DNA of 64,000 nt from Ferroplasma acidarmanus Fer1 (GTDB lineage: Archaea > Thermoplasmatota > Thermoplasmata > Thermoplasmatales > Thermoplasmataceae). This document shows positions 14,851 to 58,077 of the stretch, one piece after another; position 1 is the first letter of the stretch, and every line of letters starts with the position of its first letter. The notes below the pieces were generated by a model. The model ran no database searches. It was not told where the DNA came from and saw only the letters and a program-made list of their open reading frames with translations. The position numbers and the translations under genes are program-made. The stretch spans positions 1,798,001 through 1,862,000 of the forward strand of contig NC_021592.1 of NCBI RefSeq assembly GCF_000152265.2. The letters run 5' to 3'.

Positions 14851-15567
14851 AAACTAATATATAGAATACACTAATAAATATTATTGAAAAAAACAATAGA
14901 AATATTGCCGGGGAACATAGTTAACTAAGAGGAAATCAATTAGATAATGGTAAGTATAGCATTAAAAATGATACTGGTGGGAGTTCCGGAATAATTGCAT
15001 AGAGCTAACAACATTTATGTGTTCTGTTTGACCGGTCAGGTAATAAATAATATGGGGGTTCTCAAAATCCTTTATTTTACAAATCATTCTACCAGAAAGA
15101 AAGCCACTGAGTTTAAGATGTGGATGGATTTCTGGAAATAAAGAAATAAATGGAAATAATTTATATATTAAATTGATATAATAAAATTAATAGAAGAAAG
15201 TATGATAGAAGAAAAGAGAAACAAAATTAAAAATTCCTTAAGAATAACAAGAGAAAGAAGAAAAACACAGGATGTAATAATACTTAAACTAAAAATAGAC
15301 AATGATAAATTAAATAATAATACTATAAAGGCATTAAACACAATCTTTTTAGAAGCTAAATGGCTATATAATTATGTTATAAACAAAGAATTCAACAATG
15401 ATATTTTTAATATAGACCCTAAAATAAAGAATGTAAATGTATATGTAAAAGACCATTATGAAACAAGGAAATTAAATTATTTATCATCACAGATGAAGGA
15501 GGAAATTATTAACAGGGCAATGGACAATATAAGAGGCCTCCATAAATTAAAAGAGAATGGCTTTAAA

Positions 15568-15582
15568 GTTGGAAAATTGAAA
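15568..15582. repeat. Target-site duplication of nested IS, left copy
   Basis: GTTGGAAAATTGAAA occurs here and again at 16565-16579, directly flanking the nested element. Fifteen base pairs is within the range reported for IS481-type elements. Confidence 0.9.
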
Positions 15583-16564
15583 TATATTGTCCCGTAAATA
15601 TTTCCTATATATACCCTCTAAAAATATAATAAAAGAATATAAGCCCAGAATGAAGTTAAATGAGAAAAAAATAAAATATATAATAAGGGAGAAAAATAAG
15701 AGAAGATCATCTACAGAAATAGCTAAGGAAATGAAAATAACAACAAGGTATGTAAATTACATATACAAAAAATACAGGGATAATGGAGAATATACAATAG
15801 GTAAAAGGAAACATAGGGAATTAAACAGCAAGGATATAGAAATAGTTAAAAAAATAAGATATGAATACCCTATGTCAGGACCTGAAAGAATAAGGAAATA
15901 CCTTAAAAGAAAGGGGATAATAATAGCTAAAAACAATATATACAGAATACTGTTATTATTAAATATGGTTGATAACAGCAATAATAAGAAGAAACAGAGA
16001 AAATATATAAAATATGAGAGGAAACATAGCAACTCACTATGGCATATGGACTGGACTAAATACAGTGACAGTGAGAAGTTAATAATAATAGAAGATGATG
16101 CTTCAAGGTTCATAGTAGGAATGGGAATATACGGTGAGGAAACAATAGATAATACAATAGAAGCACTGGAAATAGCAATAAACACTTACGGTAAGCCTGA
16201 AGAGATATTAACAGACCATGGAACACAGTTCTTTTCAAATGGTAAGAATGGAATACCTGGAGATCACAATAAGTTCCAGGAATACTTAGATAACAGTAAT
16301 ATAAAACACATACTTGGAAGGGTAAAACACCCTGAAACAAATGGAAAACTGGAGAGATTAAACTATACCATAAAACGTTTAAGGCCATATTTCAGTACCT
16401 GGGAAGAGGTAGTATACCATTACAACTATGAAAGGATGCATGACTCACTGTCAGATGGTGATAATATAGTTACACCAGCAATGGCATATAAAAATAAAAT
16501 GGTGGTAAAATGAAAAAATATAAATTCATACAGTATATAAAGGAAATAATAATGGGACAGTACA
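15583..16564 (+). mobile_element. IS481-like insertion sequence nested in tnpB
   Basis: This 982-bp element has imperfect terminal inverted repeats. The left end reads TATATTGTCCCGTAAAT and the reverse complement of the right end reads TGTACTGTCCCATTATT; both go on to TATTTCC. It is bounded by a perfect 15-bp duplication and encodes one rve-type transposase. Excision restores the TnpB reading frame. Confidence 0.9.
15650..16513 (+). CDS. IS481-like DDE (rve) transposase
   Basis: This integrase-type transposase of about 287 aa starts at the ATG at 15650. The upstream in-frame TTG at 15587 lies inside the terminal repeat and is not favoured. An N-terminal helix-turn-helix (residues ~10-60: STEIAKEMKITTRYVNYIYK) and a second HTH region (YPMSGPERIRKYLKRKG) precede the catalytic core. 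The DDE residues lie in WHMDWTKY, LTDHGTQFF and ETNGKLERLN. The frame is intact, so this element may still be active. Confidence 0.88.
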   Translation: MKLNEKKIKYIIREKNKRRSSTEIAKEMKITTRYVNYIYKKYRDNGEYTIGKRKHRELNSKDIEIVKKIRYEYPMSGPERIRKYLKRKGIIIAKNNIYRILLLLNMVDNSNNKKKQRKYIKYERKHSNSLWHMDWTKYSDSEKLIIIEDDASRFIVGMGIYGEETIDNTIEALEIAINTYGKPEEILTDHGTQFFSNGKNGIPGDHNKFQEYLDNSNIKHILGRVKHPETNGKLERLNYTIKRLRPYFSTWEEVVYHYNYERMHDSLSDGDNIVTPAMAYKNKMVVK

Positions 16565-16579
16565 GTTGGAAAATTGAAA
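16565..16579. repeat. Target-site duplication of nested IS, right copy
   Basis: This is the second copy of GTTGGAAAATTGAAA, followed at once by the resumed tnpB coding sequence. Confidence 0.9.
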
Positions 16580-17499
16580 TTTAAATCATTTATAACATCA
16601 ATACCATTGAATCAATATACTATAACATATAAAATAATAAACAATAATTATATTAAAATACAGAATATAAAGCAGTTGTTAAAAGTAAATGGCCTGGATA
16701 ACTTAGAATGCTATTATGAACCGGCAAGTGCATTGTTAATCAATAATAACAATAATTATTATATCAACATAACAGCGTATAAAAATAAATACATTTTAGA
16801 AAAACCTGTCAATAATCAAAAAATAATATCATTTGACTTAGGAATAAAGAACCAGTTGACATGCTCTAATGGATCAATATTAAACTATAATATACCAAAA
16901 TCCAAAAAAGAAATAAGATTGCAGAGGTCATTGTCAAGGAAAGCCAGATATGCAGAAGGAACTAAAAAACTAAGTAGAGGGCAATCCAGGAATTATTATA
17001 AAAACAAAAATAAATTAAACAAAGAACAGAATAAGACAATGAACAGAAGAAAAGACACTATTAACAAAATAACCCATTATCTAACATCCAATTATGATAT
17101 AGTAATAACACAGAATGACAATATAAGAGGATGGAAGCATCTCTTTGGCAGGAAAATAGAATCTACAGGTATAGGTGGAATAATCGATGCACTTAAACAT
17201 AAGGCATCAACACTTATATTACTGGATAAATTTATTCCTACCACAAAGGAATGTTCTAATTGCCATAATAAATATGATATAAAATTAGATGAAAGGATAT
17301 ATCAATGCCATAACTGTGGTTTTATAATAGATAGGGATTATAATTCTGCATTAAATGATATGTATTATGGAATTAAAAAATTAAATGAATTATTAAAAAT
17401 TAAAAATAAAAAATTAAATAATTATTTTAAGAAATATAATATAAATTTAAATGTACCTATGGAGCGTAGGGAATTAACGCCTGTGGAGATTATTGCCTC

Positions 17500-17591
17500 T
17501 GGCTTTGAAGGGCTTAATATAAGCCCATATGTGAAGTTAAGCATGGTCAGTGAAGCAGGAAGCCTCTATGCTTTAGCATGAGGTAGCTCAC
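17500..17591 (+). ncRNA. Predicted reRNA (omega-RNA) scaffold of element A
   Basis: In characterised IS200/IS605 elements the guide RNA is transcribed from the tnpB 3' end through the right end, and the guide is the flanking DNA. Here a CCTC/GAGG stem with an ATGC/GCAT inner stem (17563-17583) overlaps the tnpB stop codon, and GCTCAC ends the element. The guide would begin at 17592 with TTCCCACAGG. Predicted by structure and position only. Confidence 0.4.
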
Positions 17592-19211: not shown

Positions 19212-20150
19212 CAATATAAATTTAATATATATTGTTTAGTCCCATTTCATATGAATTACCATGCAAGGGCAGGTTTAATCTATAATGCTAGGGCATTGTA
19301 TGCCCTTAACTGGATGGACATTGCCCCGGCACTTAAATACATAAAATCCAGCTTCGATATTGACTTAATTGCACTGGGTGCCCTGGTTACCTCATTCTAT
19401 CTTGGCATAGCTATATTTCAGGTAGTGGGTGGGTTACTTGCATCCTATATAGGTGATAAAAAAACATCGTTAACAGGATTGCTGCTCATGGGGATATTCG
19501 CAATTATCTCCGGTCTCTCTACCAACTTCACCGAATTAATTATTTCAAGATTTTTTTCCGGATTATCCGGAGCTTTTTTCTTTTCATCGACCTTAAGCCT
19601 TCTACTCTCTGTTATACCGGAAAACAAATCTGCATTCCATATTGGTGTTTACAATGGGGCATTTGCTGCAGGCGGTGGTATCGGAATATTTGGATGGGCT
19701 ATACTTGACCAGTACATAGGCTATAAAATTCCGTTCATAATAGCAGGGATAATAACACTGGCTACATTTATTCTGGTTGAAATTTCCTTCAGAGATGTAA
19801 GGAAAATAAAGACAGATAGGGCAGCACTGAAAAAAGGGTTGAAGCATGTGCTCACATCTAAAGTTATAATATTTATAGCATTAATCGGGATCGGTGCCAG
19901 AATATCAGAAACAATAATAGGGCAGTTTTTTGTATATTACAAATCTCTCTACCAGAAAGAAAGTCACTGAGTTTACGGTGTGGATGAATTTCTGTAATTG
20001 TTAAATATTCAATAATTAATTAATATTTAAACAATTTTCAAATCTAATGAATGGCATAATTTTTAAAATAACAATAAATTAACTATTTTTAAGATAATTA
20101 TACTATATGCATATATAATAGCAAGGTTTATTCAATAATATCATATACAT

Positions 20151-21539
20151 ATGAGAAAAAGAGCCATGATGTCTGAAGAACGGAGAAATAAAATTAAAAA
20201 TTCGTTAAAACTAACAAAGGAAAAAAGAAAAACACAGGATGTAATAATACTTAAACTAAAAATAGACAATGATAAATTAAATAATAATACTATAAAGGCA
20301 TTAAACACAATGTTTTTAGAGACAAAATGGCTATATAATTATATTTTAGATAAGGAATTCAACAATGATATTTTTAAATTTGATTATAAAACAAATTATG
20401 CAAATGTATATGTAAAAGACCATTATGAAAGGAGAAAAATAAATTATTTATCAGCACAGATGAAACAGGATTTATTAAAAAGAACTGAAAATAATATAAG
20501 CGGGCTACACGAATTAAAAGAGAATGGCTTTAAAACAGGCAAATTAAAATTTAAAAAAGAAATAAATTCTATACCTCTAAGACAATTCGGCAAAGGTAAA
20601 ACATATAATATAATAAATAATTTTAATTATATTAAAATTCAGAGAATAGAACAACCATTAAAAGTAAACGGTTTTTATGAAACTTTTACTGATAATGAAA
20701 ACATAAAGCATAAAGAATTAAAATATGATTTTAATAATTTAGATTTTGGAAATGCTATGCTAATACATAAGAACAATAATTATTATATCAATATAACAGC
20801 ATATACAAAAAAGGAAGAAAGAAATAATAATAGAATAATAGGCATAGATTCAGGGATTAAAACTCAACTGACATTATCAAATGGACTAAAATTGGAATAT
20901 AATATACCAAAATCTAAAAGGGAAATAAGATTGCAGAGAGAGTTATCAAGAAAAGCTAAATATGCAGAAGGATCTAAGAAAAAACTAAGTGGAGAGCAAT
21001 CTAAGAATTATAATAAAAATAAAAACAGATTAAACAGGGAACAGCAAAAGAGAAACAATAAGAAAAGAGATGTAAAAAATAAAATAGTCCATTATATAAC
21101 ATCTAACTACAATATAATAATAACGCAGAATGACAATATATCCGGATGGCAAAAACTATTTGGCAAAAAAATAGAAAATACAGGTATAGGAAGCATTATT
21201 GAAGCACTTAAAAGTAAGGCTTCAAATCTTATACCTGTAGGCCGTTTCATTCCTACAACAAAGGAGTGCAATAATTGCCATAATAAATATGATATAAAAT
21301 TAAATGAAAGAATTTATAAATGCAGTAACTGTGGCTATATCATTGACAGAGATTATAATTCTTCATTGAATATGATTTATTATGGAATGAAAACAAAAAA
21401 GTTTAAAAATACAGTACCTGAGGATAGCAGGGAATTTACGCCCGGGGAAACATTAACCGATACCTTCGAAGGACTTAATACTCCATATGTGAAGGCAAGT
21501 TATGTCGATGAACCAGGAAGCTTCAATGCTTTAGCATGA
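20151..21539 (+). CDS. tnpB: TnpB RNA-guided nuclease family protein (RuvC-II Gln variant)
   Basis: This 462-aa TnpB has an intact frame, starting MRKRAMMSEERRNK. RuvC-I Asp233 lies in GIDSGIKTQLTL. The zinc finger is CNNCHNKY...CSNCG. RuvC-III Asp399/401 lie in IDRDYNSSLN. At the RuvC-II position, where family members have Glu in a motif like IEDLNV, this protein has TQNDNISGW with Gln326. Elements A and C share the change. The C-terminal tail (FEGLNTPYVK...ALA) is conserved with A and C although the preceding ~30 residues differ, as expected if that DNA also encodes guide RNA. Activity is uncertain. Confidence 0.9.
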   Translation: MRKRAMMSEERRNKIKNSLKLTKEKRKTQDVIILKLKIDNDKLNNNTIKALNTMFLETKWLYNYILDKEFNNDIFKFDYKTNYANVYVKDHYERRKINYLSAQMKQDLLKRTENNISGLHELKENGFKTGKLKFKKEINSIPLRQFGKGKTYNIINNFNYIKIQRIEQPLKVNGFYETFTDNENIKHKELKYDFNNLDFGNAMLIHKNNNYYINITAYTKKEERNNNRIIGIDSGIKTQLTLSNGLKLEYNIPKSKREIRLQRELSRKAKYAEGSKKKLSGEQSKNYNKNKNRLNREQQKRNNKKRDVKNKIVHYITSNYNIIITQNDNISGWQKLFGKKIENTGIGSIIEALKSKASNLIPVGRFIPTTKECNNCHNKYDIKLNERIYKCSNCGYIIDRDYNSSLNMIYYGMKTKKFKNTVPEDSREFTPGETLTDTFEGLNTPYVKASYVDEPGSFNALA

Positions 21540-21549
21540 AGTAGTTCAC
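21461..21549 (+). ncRNA. Predicted reRNA (omega-RNA) scaffold of element B
   Basis: The hairpin at 21521-21541 has CTTC/GAAG outer and ATGC/GCAT inner stems. Elements A and C have CCTC/GAGG at the same place, which is a compensatory pair change. The guide would start at 21550 with CTTGAAACAA from the disrupted MFS gene. Prediction only. Confidence 0.4.
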
Positions 21550-56113: not shown

Positions 56114-56205
56114 GTGAACTACCTCATGCTAAAGCATAGAGGCTTCCTGCTTCATTGACCATGCTTAACTTCACATAGGGGCTTATATTAAGCCCTTCAA
56201 AGCCA
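56114..56205 (-). ncRNA. Predicted reRNA (omega-RNA) scaffold of element C
   Basis: The CCTC/GAGG plus ATGC/GCAT hairpin at 56122-56142 overlaps the tnpB stop codon, and the element ends in GTTCAC at 56114. The guide would be CGTTGGATCT and onward, from the disrupted MFS gene. Prediction only. Confidence 0.4.
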
Positions 56206-57530
56206 GAGGCAATAATCTCCACAGGCGTTAGTTCCCTACGCTCCATAGGTACATTTAAATTTATATTATATTTCTTAAAATAATTATTTAATTTTTTATT
56301 TTTAATTTTTAATAACTCATTTAATTTTATTATTCCATAATAAATCATATTCAATGCAGAATTATAATCCCTATCTATAATAAAACCACAATTAGGGCAT
56401 TTATATATTCTTTCATCCAATTTTATATTATATTTATTATGGCAATTAGAACATTCCTTTGTTGTAGGAATGAAACGATCTATAAGTATAAGTGTTGATG
56501 CCTTATGTTTAAGTGCATCTATTATTCCACCTATACCTGTAGATTCTATTTTCTTTCCGAATAGCCTCTGCCATCCGGATATATTGTCGTTCTGTGTTAC
56601 TACTATATCATAATTGGATGTTAGATAATGGGTTATTTTGTTAATAGTGTCCTTTCTTTTGTTTTTTGTCCTATCTTGTTCTCTGTTTAATCTGTTTTTA
56701 TTTTTATAATAGTTCTTGGATTGTTTTTTACTGAGTTTATTCTTAGAACCTTCCACATATTCAGCTTTTCTTGACAATGACCTTTGCAGTCTTTTTTCTT
56801 TTTTGGATTTTGGTATATTATAGTTTAATATTAACCCATTAGAGCATGTCAACTGATTCTTTATTCCCAGGTCAAATGATAATATTTTCTGGTTATTTAC
56901 CGGTTTTTCTAAAATGTATTTATTTTTGTATGCTGTTATGTTAATATAATAATTATTGTTATTGTTATTAATTAACAATGCATTTGCCGGTTCATAATAG
57001 CATTCTAAATTATCCAGGCCATTTACTTTTAATAACTGCTTTATGTCCTGTATTTTAATATAATTATTGTTTATTATTTTATATGTTATAGTATATTGAT
57101 TCAATGGTATTGATGTTATAAATGATTTAAATTTCAATTTTCCAACTTTAAATCCCTTTTCTTTTAATTTGTGTAATCCATTTATATTGTCCTTTGCCCT
57201 ATTGATTATTTCCTGCTTCATCTGTGATGATAAATATTTTAATTCCCTTGTTTCATAATGGTCTTTAACATATACATTTACATTCTTTATTTTAGAATCT
57301 ATATTAAAAATATCATTGTTGAATTCTTTGTTTAGTATATAATTATATAGCCATTTAGCTTCTAAAAACATTGTGTTTAATGCCTTTATAGTATTGTTAT
57401 TTAATTTATCATTGTCTATCTTTAGTTTAAGTATTATTACATCCTGTGTTTTTCTTCTTTCTCCTGTTATTCTTAACGAATTTTTAATTTTATTTCTTCG
57501 TTCTTCAGGCATCATGGCTCTTTTTCTCAT
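56124..57530 (-). CDS. tnpB: TnpB RNA-guided nuclease family protein (RuvC-II Gln variant)
   Basis: This 468-aa TnpB starts MRKRAMMPEERRNK. It has RuvC-I Asp in SFDLGIKNQL, the four-Cys finger CSNCHNKY...CPNCG and RuvC-III IDRDYNSALN. RuvC-II reads VVTQNDNISGW, with Gln in place of the catalytic Glu, as in A and B. The C-terminal tail carries an Asn/Lys-rich insert (LLKIKNKKLNNYFKKYN) absent from B. The frame is intact. AT-rich codon use is stronger than in host genes, as expected for a mobile element. Confidence 0.9.
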   Translation of the reverse strand: MRKRAMMPEERRNKIKNSLRITGERRKTQDVIILKLKIDNDKLNNNTIKALNTMFLEAKWLYNYILNKEFNNDIFNIDSKIKNVNVYVKDHYETRELKYLSSQMKQEIINRAKDNINGLHKLKEKGFKVGKLKFKSFITSIPLNQYTITYKIINNNYIKIQDIKQLLKVNGLDNLECYYEPANALLINNNNNNYYINITAYKNKYILEKPVNNQKILSFDLGIKNQLTCSNGLILNYNIPKSKKEKRLQRSLSRKAEYVEGSKNKLSKKQSKNYYKNKNRLNREQDRTKNKRKDTINKITHYLTSNYDIVVTQNDNISGWQRLFGKKIESTGIGGIIDALKHKASTLILIDRFIPTTKECSNCHNKYNIKLDERIYKCPNCGFIIDRDYNSALNMIYYGIIKLNELLKIKNKKLNNYFKKYNINLNVPMERRELTPVEIIASGFEGLNISPYVKLSMVNEAGSLYALA

Positions 57531-58077
57531 ATGTATATAATATTATTGTATAAATCTTGCTGTTATATATGCATATGTTATAATTATCTTAAAAATATTC
57601 AATTTATTGTTATTTTAAAAATTATGCCATTCATGGGATTTGAAAATTGTTTAAATATTAATTATTGAATATTTAACAATTCCAGAAATTCATCCACATC
57701 GTAAACTCAGTGGCTTTATTTCTGGTAGATAGATTTGTAAATATAGCAATTCCCGATATAAAAATATTTTTTCTTGCCAGGATATCACCCAGCCTCCCCA
57801 GCTGTGTTGTACCCACAGCAATAACCAGCAGATAAATCAGAATAATACATATTGATAGGGAAAGCTGGGTTTTTAAACTATCTGTTATGGTGGGAAGTGA
57901 AAGCAGGACTATGGTAGAAGAATCCACAGCACCCATTAGAACTGCAAGCAAAAGTGATATAATTAACTTGAAAGAAGCATCCATTGAGATAAAATTATAA
58001 TGAGGTATTAAAATATTTAGTAATTAACTGGATAGAACTGGAAATAAAAGGACTCAAGAACTAAGTTATAAACTCTT

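What the first reader, a model, noticed from the sequence alone, without database searches (positions are those of the whole stretch)
20841..21355. TnpB family with Gln replacing the RuvC-II catalytic Glu in all three elements
Elements A, B and C all read TQNDNI(S/R)GW where TnpB proteins normally have a motif like (I/V)EDLNVxGM. The flanking RuvC-I Asp, the zinc finger and the RuvC-III Asp are kept. The glutamate is part of the metal site in characterised TnpB nucleases. Its loss is known from nuclease-dead TnpB-like repressors, yet these proteins sit in elements with intact ends that disrupted genes recently. Either another residue supplies the carboxylate, or DNA cleavage is dispensable here, or TnpB acts in another way.
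Basis: partly seen in the sequence, partly recalled or inferred. Interest (0 to 1): 0.62.

Follow-up and report, generated by a model that had tools for sequence, protein, structure and literature searches.

The report
TnpB clade with shifted catalytic acid
These jumping-gene proteins really have lost the usual acid at one position of their DNA-cutting centre, but every relative found carries a replacement acid exactly two residues further on, so they are probably working RNA-guided DNA cutters with a rearranged active site rather than dead ones.

Summary
The TnpB genes of elements A, B and C read TQNDNI(S/R)GW at RuvC-II. Sequence alignment to ISDra2 TnpB (Gln aligns with E278) and AlphaFold2 secondary structure (Gln ends the strand that E ends in a canonical control) put the Gln at the catalytic Glu position. 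RuvC-I Asp, RuvC-III Asp and the zinc finger are intact.

It is not a local loss. The Gln defines one deep monophyletic TnpB clade (support 100/100) in a Ferroplasma-like archaeon and its genus, a second Thermoplasmatales genus, Micrarchaeota, Synergistota and Bifidobacterium plasmids, a Thermus phage and IMG/VR viral contigs. In 21 non-redundant members the residue two places after the Gln is always Asp or Glu (11 D, 10 E). In 77 canonical TnpBs it is never acidic (76 L, 1 I). It switches between D and E at least three times and is never lost.

The proteins sit in IS200/IS605 elements (Y1 TnpA in related copies, TTAC/TCAC ends, precise empty sites in a sister genome), keep a covarying right-end RNA, and show dN/dS 0.09-0.24.

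Best reading: an active RNA-guided nuclease whose RuvC-II carboxylate moved two residues toward the lid. Nuclease-dead repressor is unlikely. Cleavage and metal geometry were not shown. The 2023 PNAS TnpB census could not be read, so precedence is open.

The parts
19941..21549 (+). Element B, 1609 bp, from AAATC (directly after TTAC) to GTAGTTCAC; interrupts an MFS gene
   Evidence: Flanks join in frame; empty site 98% identical over 240/240 bases in sister genome G060
20151..21539 (+). tnpB of element B, 462 aa, Q-type
   Evidence: NCBIfam guided_TnpB 116 bits, cut-off 100
20847..20849 (+). RuvC-I Asp (D233 of B)
   Evidence: invariant in the aligned TnpBs wherever the column is present
21126..21128 (+). 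Gln at the RuvC-II position (Q326 of B; equals Q313 of C)
21132..21134 (+). Candidate relocated catalytic carboxylate, Asp at Gln+2 (D328 of B; equals D315 of C)
21351..21353 (+). RuvC-III Asp (D401 of B)
21425..21549 (+). Right-end RNA (reRNA) scaffold region of B; guide expected from 21550 onward (CTTGAAACAATACGG...)
   Evidence: 12 of 24 pairs change on both sides and stay paired; slid controls 0-1
56114..57736 (-). Element C, 1623 bp, same ends; interrupts another MFS gene
   Evidence: empty site 93% identical over 240/240 bases in G060
56124..57530 (-). tnpB of element C, 468 aa, Q-type (Q313 at 56592-56594, D315 at 56586-56588)
15081..17591 (+). Element A, same ends, carrying a nested insertion
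15202..15597 (+). 5' part of element A tnpB
   Evidence: 88% identical to C
15587..16513 (+). Nested rve-family (DDE) transposase that splits element A tnpB
   Evidence: Pfam rve 56.7 bits; GTTGGAAAATTGAAA on both sides at 15568 and 16565
16574..17581 (+). 3' part of element A tnpB, with Q at 17111-17113 and Asp at 17117-17119

Best explanation
These are TnpB proteins of IS200/IS605 elements that belong to a monophyletic clade in which the RuvC-II catalytic Glu became Gln and a carboxylate (Asp or Glu) was installed two residues later, at the base of the lid. The protein most likely still binds its right-end RNA and, at a TTAC-flanked target matching the RNA guide, cuts DNA with a metal site made of RuvC-I Asp, the Gln+2 carboxylate and RuvC-III Asp, the Gln staying as a neutral ligand or second-shell residue. 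This would keep the element in place by cutting the emptied donor site, as proposed for other TnpBs. Shown here: the motif, its phylogeny, exact co-occurrence of Gln with the +2 acid, conservation of the rest of the catalytic and transposon machinery, and the covarying RNA. Inferred: that the +2 acid binds metal, that DNA is cut, and the role in retention.
For: In 21 non-redundant Q-type proteins position +2 is acidic in all (11 D, 10 E); in 77 E-type proteins in none. At least three D/E exchanges and no loss on the Q-clade tree, while +1, +3, +5 and +6 vary. RuvC-I and RuvC-III Asp invariant. Q clade monophyletic, 100/100, with motif columns left out. L119, L122, L124, L125 and L127-L130 were found without the Q motif as a search pattern, and all show QDD or QDE. 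dN/dS 0.09-0.24. Complete element with Y1 TnpA in G068; TnpA adjacent in G041, G043, viral and Bifidobacterium loci. Precise empty sites. Covarying right-end RNA. Best fold matches are TnpB structures 8iaz and 8h1j.
Against: No coordinates were available, so side-chain to metal distances were not measured. In both models the +2 residue lies in the linker between strand and lid helix, and in canonical TnpB that position is hydrophobic. Q and the +2 acid arose on one long stem branch (1.13), so the pairing is one evolutionary event and not repeated coevolution. Gln is itself invariant, which suggests a direct role. E278A inactivates ISDra2 TnpB in vivo (PMC8612924).
Confidence: 0.62

Rival explanations
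1. The nuclease is active but uses the Gln itself as a neutral metal ligand (a D-Q-D site); the +2 acid serves the lid or RNA/DNA contacts.
For: Gln is invariant. GtFz1 Fanzor is active with a natural Asn in place of the third catalytic Asp (PMC11423790).
Against: It does not explain why an acid is always present at +2 only when Gln is present. In ISDra2 TnpB and Cas12 comparable Asp-to-Asn changes did not raise activity.
Confidence: 0.17
2. The proteins are nuclease-dead or nickase-like RNA-guided DNA binders (as TldR or Cas12m) and act by blocking or by helping transposition without cutting.
For: Loss of the canonical Glu. Cas12m clades with HQK and HDD sites exist, and the HDD-type Cas12m2 binds without cutting (PMC10442227).
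Against: Both other catalytic Asp are invariant over a very divergent clade, an acid is kept at +2, and the genes stay in transposons, in several cases beside TnpA.
Confidence: 0.13
3. A Glu on the helix between RuvC-I and RuvC-II (E284 of C) supplies the carboxylate, as helix A Glu does in RNase HI.
For: Glu in 17 of 20 non-redundant Q-type proteins against about 3% acidic in E-type.
Against: Replaced by Ala, Val or Ile in L129 and the L136/L138/L140 lineage, at least two losses.
Confidence: 0.05
4. The Gln column is not the RuvC-II position, and a Glu lies elsewhere, for example the Fanzor-type site seven residues before the first zinc-finger Cys.
For: Fanzor-type relocation is known (PMC10711439).
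Against: Ungapped alignment of the motif with canonical clade proteins; the same strand end in both models. The Fanzor position (F353 of C) is not among the acidic columns of the clade.
Confidence: 0.03

Closest known systems
ISDra2 TnpB (D191, E278, D361) and other canonical TnpB
   Same: Fold, RuvC-I and RuvC-III Asp, zinc finger, IS200/IS605 setting, target motif before the left end, right-end RNA
   Different: Gln instead of Glu at RuvC-II; Asp/Glu at +2 where canonical proteins have Leu; Trp at +7 instead of Met
Ealt TnpBs, pro-Fanzors and Fanzors (relocated RuvC-II Glu; PMC10711439)
   Same: RuvC-II carboxylate relocated in a monophyletic clade
   Different: There the Glu moved far, to a fixed place before the zinc finger, with a DPG motif in Fanzors. 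Here the move is two residues and that place is not acidic
TldR, TnpB-like nuclease-dead repressors
   Same: Canonical RuvC-II Glu missing
   Different: Other catalytic residues kept, an acid at +2, still in transposons with TnpA relatives and precise ends
Cas12m (HDD, HQK and other sites; PMC10442227)
   Same: Non-canonical RuvC triad, including Gln at the second position in one clade
   Different: CRISPR effector; first Asp replaced by His in the non-cutting type. Here both Asp are invariant
TnpB branches with rearranged catalytic sites in the census of Altae-Tran et al., PNAS 2023
   Same: Same general phenomenon, by my recollection of the abstract
   Different: Unknown: the paper is not held, so this clade may already be in it

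Membership tests
TnpB (RNA-guided endonuclease family) | Sequence family: NCBIfam guided_TnpB, Pfam OrfB_IS605 and Cas12f1-like_TNB above cut-offs | tested here: met
   C 142 bits and B 116 bits (cut-off 100); Pfam. Viral-contig member L142 falls just short at 92.7
TnpB (RNA-guided endonuclease family) | TnpB fold | tested here: met
   Foldseek best PDB hits 8iaz and 8h1j, E about 1e-16; low whole-chain TM (0.3-0.4), so domains match rather than the whole arrangement
TnpB (RNA-guided endonuclease family) | RuvC D-E-D triad | tested here: not met
   D-Q-D with Asp/Glu at Gln+2. Filed as a variant of TnpB, not as a canonical member
TnpB (RNA-guided endonuclease family) | RNA-guided DNA cleavage | not testable with these tools
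   Needs biochemistry
IS200/IS605 element | Y1 (HUH) TnpA in the same element | tested here: met
   Absent from A, B and C, present in complete relatives: G068 2025-bp element with the same ends, also G041, G043 and others
IS200/IS605 element | Insertion 3' of a fixed short target, no target duplication, hairpins near the ends | tested here: met
   TTAC before the left end of every copy whose left end is held; right end TCAC; empty sites without duplication. Left-end hairpin z -3.2 in C, but not significant in B and a G043 copy
TldR (nuclease-dead TnpB-like repressor) | Degraded RuvC centre | tested here: not met
   RuvC-I and RuvC-III Asp invariant, acid at +2
TldR (nuclease-dead TnpB-like repressor) | Domesticated beside non-transposon genes | tested here: not met
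   Multicopy, precise mobile elements with TnpA relatives
Fanzor / Ealt TnpB | Glu seven residues before first zinc-finger Cys; DPG at RuvC-I for Fanzors | tested here: not met
   F353 in C, an aromatic residue (F, W or Y) in the other A2 rows read by eye; column not acidic; RuvC-I is DLG, DSG or DFG in the archaeal copies

The most novel reading that the evidence does not exclude
An undescribed TnpB clade has moved its RuvC-II catalytic carboxylate two residues, onto the base of the lid, keeping Gln in the old place. Metal-site assembly would then be tied directly to lid opening, giving an RNA-guided nuclease with different activation or less collateral ssDNA cutting, carried by living transposons in archaea, bacteria and phages.
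Probability: 0.3. Interest if true: 0.65.

Novelty: new variant of a known kind. Interest (0 to 1): 0.5.

Why it matters
Genome surveys commonly call a TnpB dead when the RuvC-II Glu is missing. This clade suggests that such a call can be wrong: a two-residue shift hides a likely active site. It gives a compact, testable case of catalytic-residue migration within an RNase H fold, with small acidophile and thermophile proteins (about 420-470 aa) as possible tools, and natural D/E swaps as built-in controls.

Tried and rejected
Helix acid D338 of C (IIDAL): acidic in both archaeal genera but S, A, N or G in many members, rejected. E284 on the RuvC-I/II helix: lost at least twice, kept only as a weak rival. 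Fanzor-type Glu before the zinc finger: not acidic here, rejected. Nuclease-dead repressor: weighed and held unlikely. Search of bacterial phyla centred on the plasmid and Micrarchaeota loci: not accepted as centres. Helicobacter suis and Cyanobacterium plasmid hits looked like possible new members but are canonical E-L types. Altae-Tran 2023, Wiegand 2024 and Altae-Tran 2021 papers: not held. None of the PDB relatives whose alignments were shown has the Q motif.

Full report
The observation. The three tnpB genes were translated and located. B (20151-21539 +) and C (56124-57530 -) are intact; A is split by an rve-family transposase gene (15587-16513) flanked by a 15-nt repeat. All three read TQNDNI(S/R)GW, and RuvC-I Asp, RuvC-III Asp and the zinc finger are present. 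phmmer aligns C with ISDra2 TnpB (8bf8, 8h1j; E about 2e-14), with Gln313 on E278, the residue whose Ala mutant is inactive in vivo (PMC8612924). An AlphaFold2 model of C (63-row alignment, mean pLDDT 86) ends the RuvC-II strand at Q313 and starts the lid helix at 317. A canonical control, L159 (pLDDT 91), ends the same strand at its catalytic E268 and starts the helix at 272. So the Gln occupies the RuvC-II Glu position.

How far it reaches. The own genome holds four full-length near relatives of C (93, 90, 90 and 72% identical, the last being B) besides five TnpBs that match the TNB profile more strongly. In Thermoplasmatales the Q type was found in the window's genus and one other genus (G043, 44-48% identity); a profile search of 293 genomes of the phylum added no further genus. 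Outside, it occurs in a Micrarchaeota contig (L115), viral contigs (among L119-L126 and L133-L146), Thermus phage phiLo (L127), a Thermovirga plasmid (L128) and Bifidobacterium plasmids (L129, L130).

The key pattern. In the alignment of 141 proteins plus two references, 45 rows have Gln and 96 have Glu at the column. After reduction at 80% identity (21 Q, 77 E), the column at Gln+2 is acidic in 21 of 21 Q-type (11 D, 10 E) and 0 of 77 E-type (76 L, 1 I). It is the only column that is always acidic in one group and never in the other. Trp at +7 is likewise invariant, where E-type has Met in 69 of 77. A maximum-likelihood tree without the motif columns puts all Q-type on one side of one branch (100/100; stem 1.13). 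Within the clade the +2 residue changes between D and E at least three times and never leaves the acids, while neighbours +1, +3, +5 and +6 change to other kinds of residue. Some search patterns contained the Q motif, but the members were found without it and agree.

The rest of the machinery is kept. RuvC-I Asp and RuvC-III Asp are invariant in the clade. dN/dS between copies, with the right-end RNA part left out, is 0.09-0.24. Every copy whose left end is held starts directly after TTAC, and the right end is GTAG(C/T)TCAC in both genera. B and C each sit in an MFS gene whose joined flanks read in frame and exist uninterrupted, 98% and 93% identical over 240 bases, in sister genome G060. A, B and C lack tnpA, but G068 carries the complete 2025-bp element with the same ends, a Y1 TnpA and a Q-type TnpB, and similar TnpA genes lie beside Q-type tnpB in G041, G043, viral and Bifidobacterium loci. 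The last 125-130 nt of the element hold a conserved RNA structure: 96.9% of cells paired, 12 of 24 pairs with changes on both sides against 0-1 in slid controls. Part of this region is coding, which the slid controls do not fully discount, but it fits a right-end guide RNA scaffold.

Interpretation. Two defining signs of nuclease-dead TnpB derivatives, decay of the catalytic centre and domestication away from the transposon, are absent. The simplest account is that the third carboxylate moved two residues along, so the site is D-(Q-x-D/E)-D, and the enzyme still cuts. Two residues is the repeat of a strand, so the side chain could point the same way if the strand continues; in both models, however, +2 lies in the short linker before the lid helix (canonical lid boundary at P282, four residues after E278; PMC11844463). 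Lid movement might therefore bring the carboxylate into place; this is inference. Alternatives are Gln as a neutral ligand, a dead binder, and E284. E284 is weakened by natural losses in members that keep the +2 acid.

Known precedents. Fanzors and Ealt TnpBs relocated the RuvC-II Glu to a place before the zinc finger (PMC10711439); that place is not acidic here. GtFz1 works with Asn as third catalytic residue (PMC11423790). Cas12m has HDD and HQK sites, and Cas12m2 (HDD) does not cut (PMC10442227). By recollection, the abstract of the 2023 PNAS census of TnpB and Cas12 reports rearranged catalytic sites in several branches; the paper is not held, so precedence for this clade is unknown. No PDB relative whose alignment was shown has the Q motif.

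Verdict. New variant of a known kind. Cleavage, metal geometry and the role in transposon retention remain untested.

Noticed in passing
15001-15080 and 19653 onward; L065 (G060): In sister genome G060 one element has the left flank of element A (80/80) and the right flank of a second TTAC site inside the MFS gene (77/80), so the stretch between, with an FAD-dependent oxidoreductase-like gene, is missing there: probably recombination between two copies or an adjacent deletion.
   Followed up: partly
15568-16579: rve-family (DDE) insertion inside element A tnpB, with GTTGGAAAATTGAAA repeated on both sides.
   Followed up: partly
L062, G068:C1:534500-538900: Complete autonomous version of the element (2025 bp, Y1 TnpA plus Q-type TnpB); the window's copies are tnpA-less and would need TnpA in trans. 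The only intact TnpA found in the own genome is 55% identical and lies beside a different TnpB.
   Followed up: yes
column 180 (C) of the clade alignment: A second column is acidic in all Q-type members (16 of 21 Glu) and in 19% of E-type, in the region before RuvC-I; role unknown.
   Followed up: no
column 320 (C), Gln+7: Trp is invariant in the Q clade in the lid helix where canonical TnpB has Met; it may pack differently against the lid or heteroduplex.
   Followed up: no
L067, L080 (G062): The first Asp of the DRD motif is Asn (INRD) in G062 copies; the catalytic second Asp is kept.
   Followed up: no
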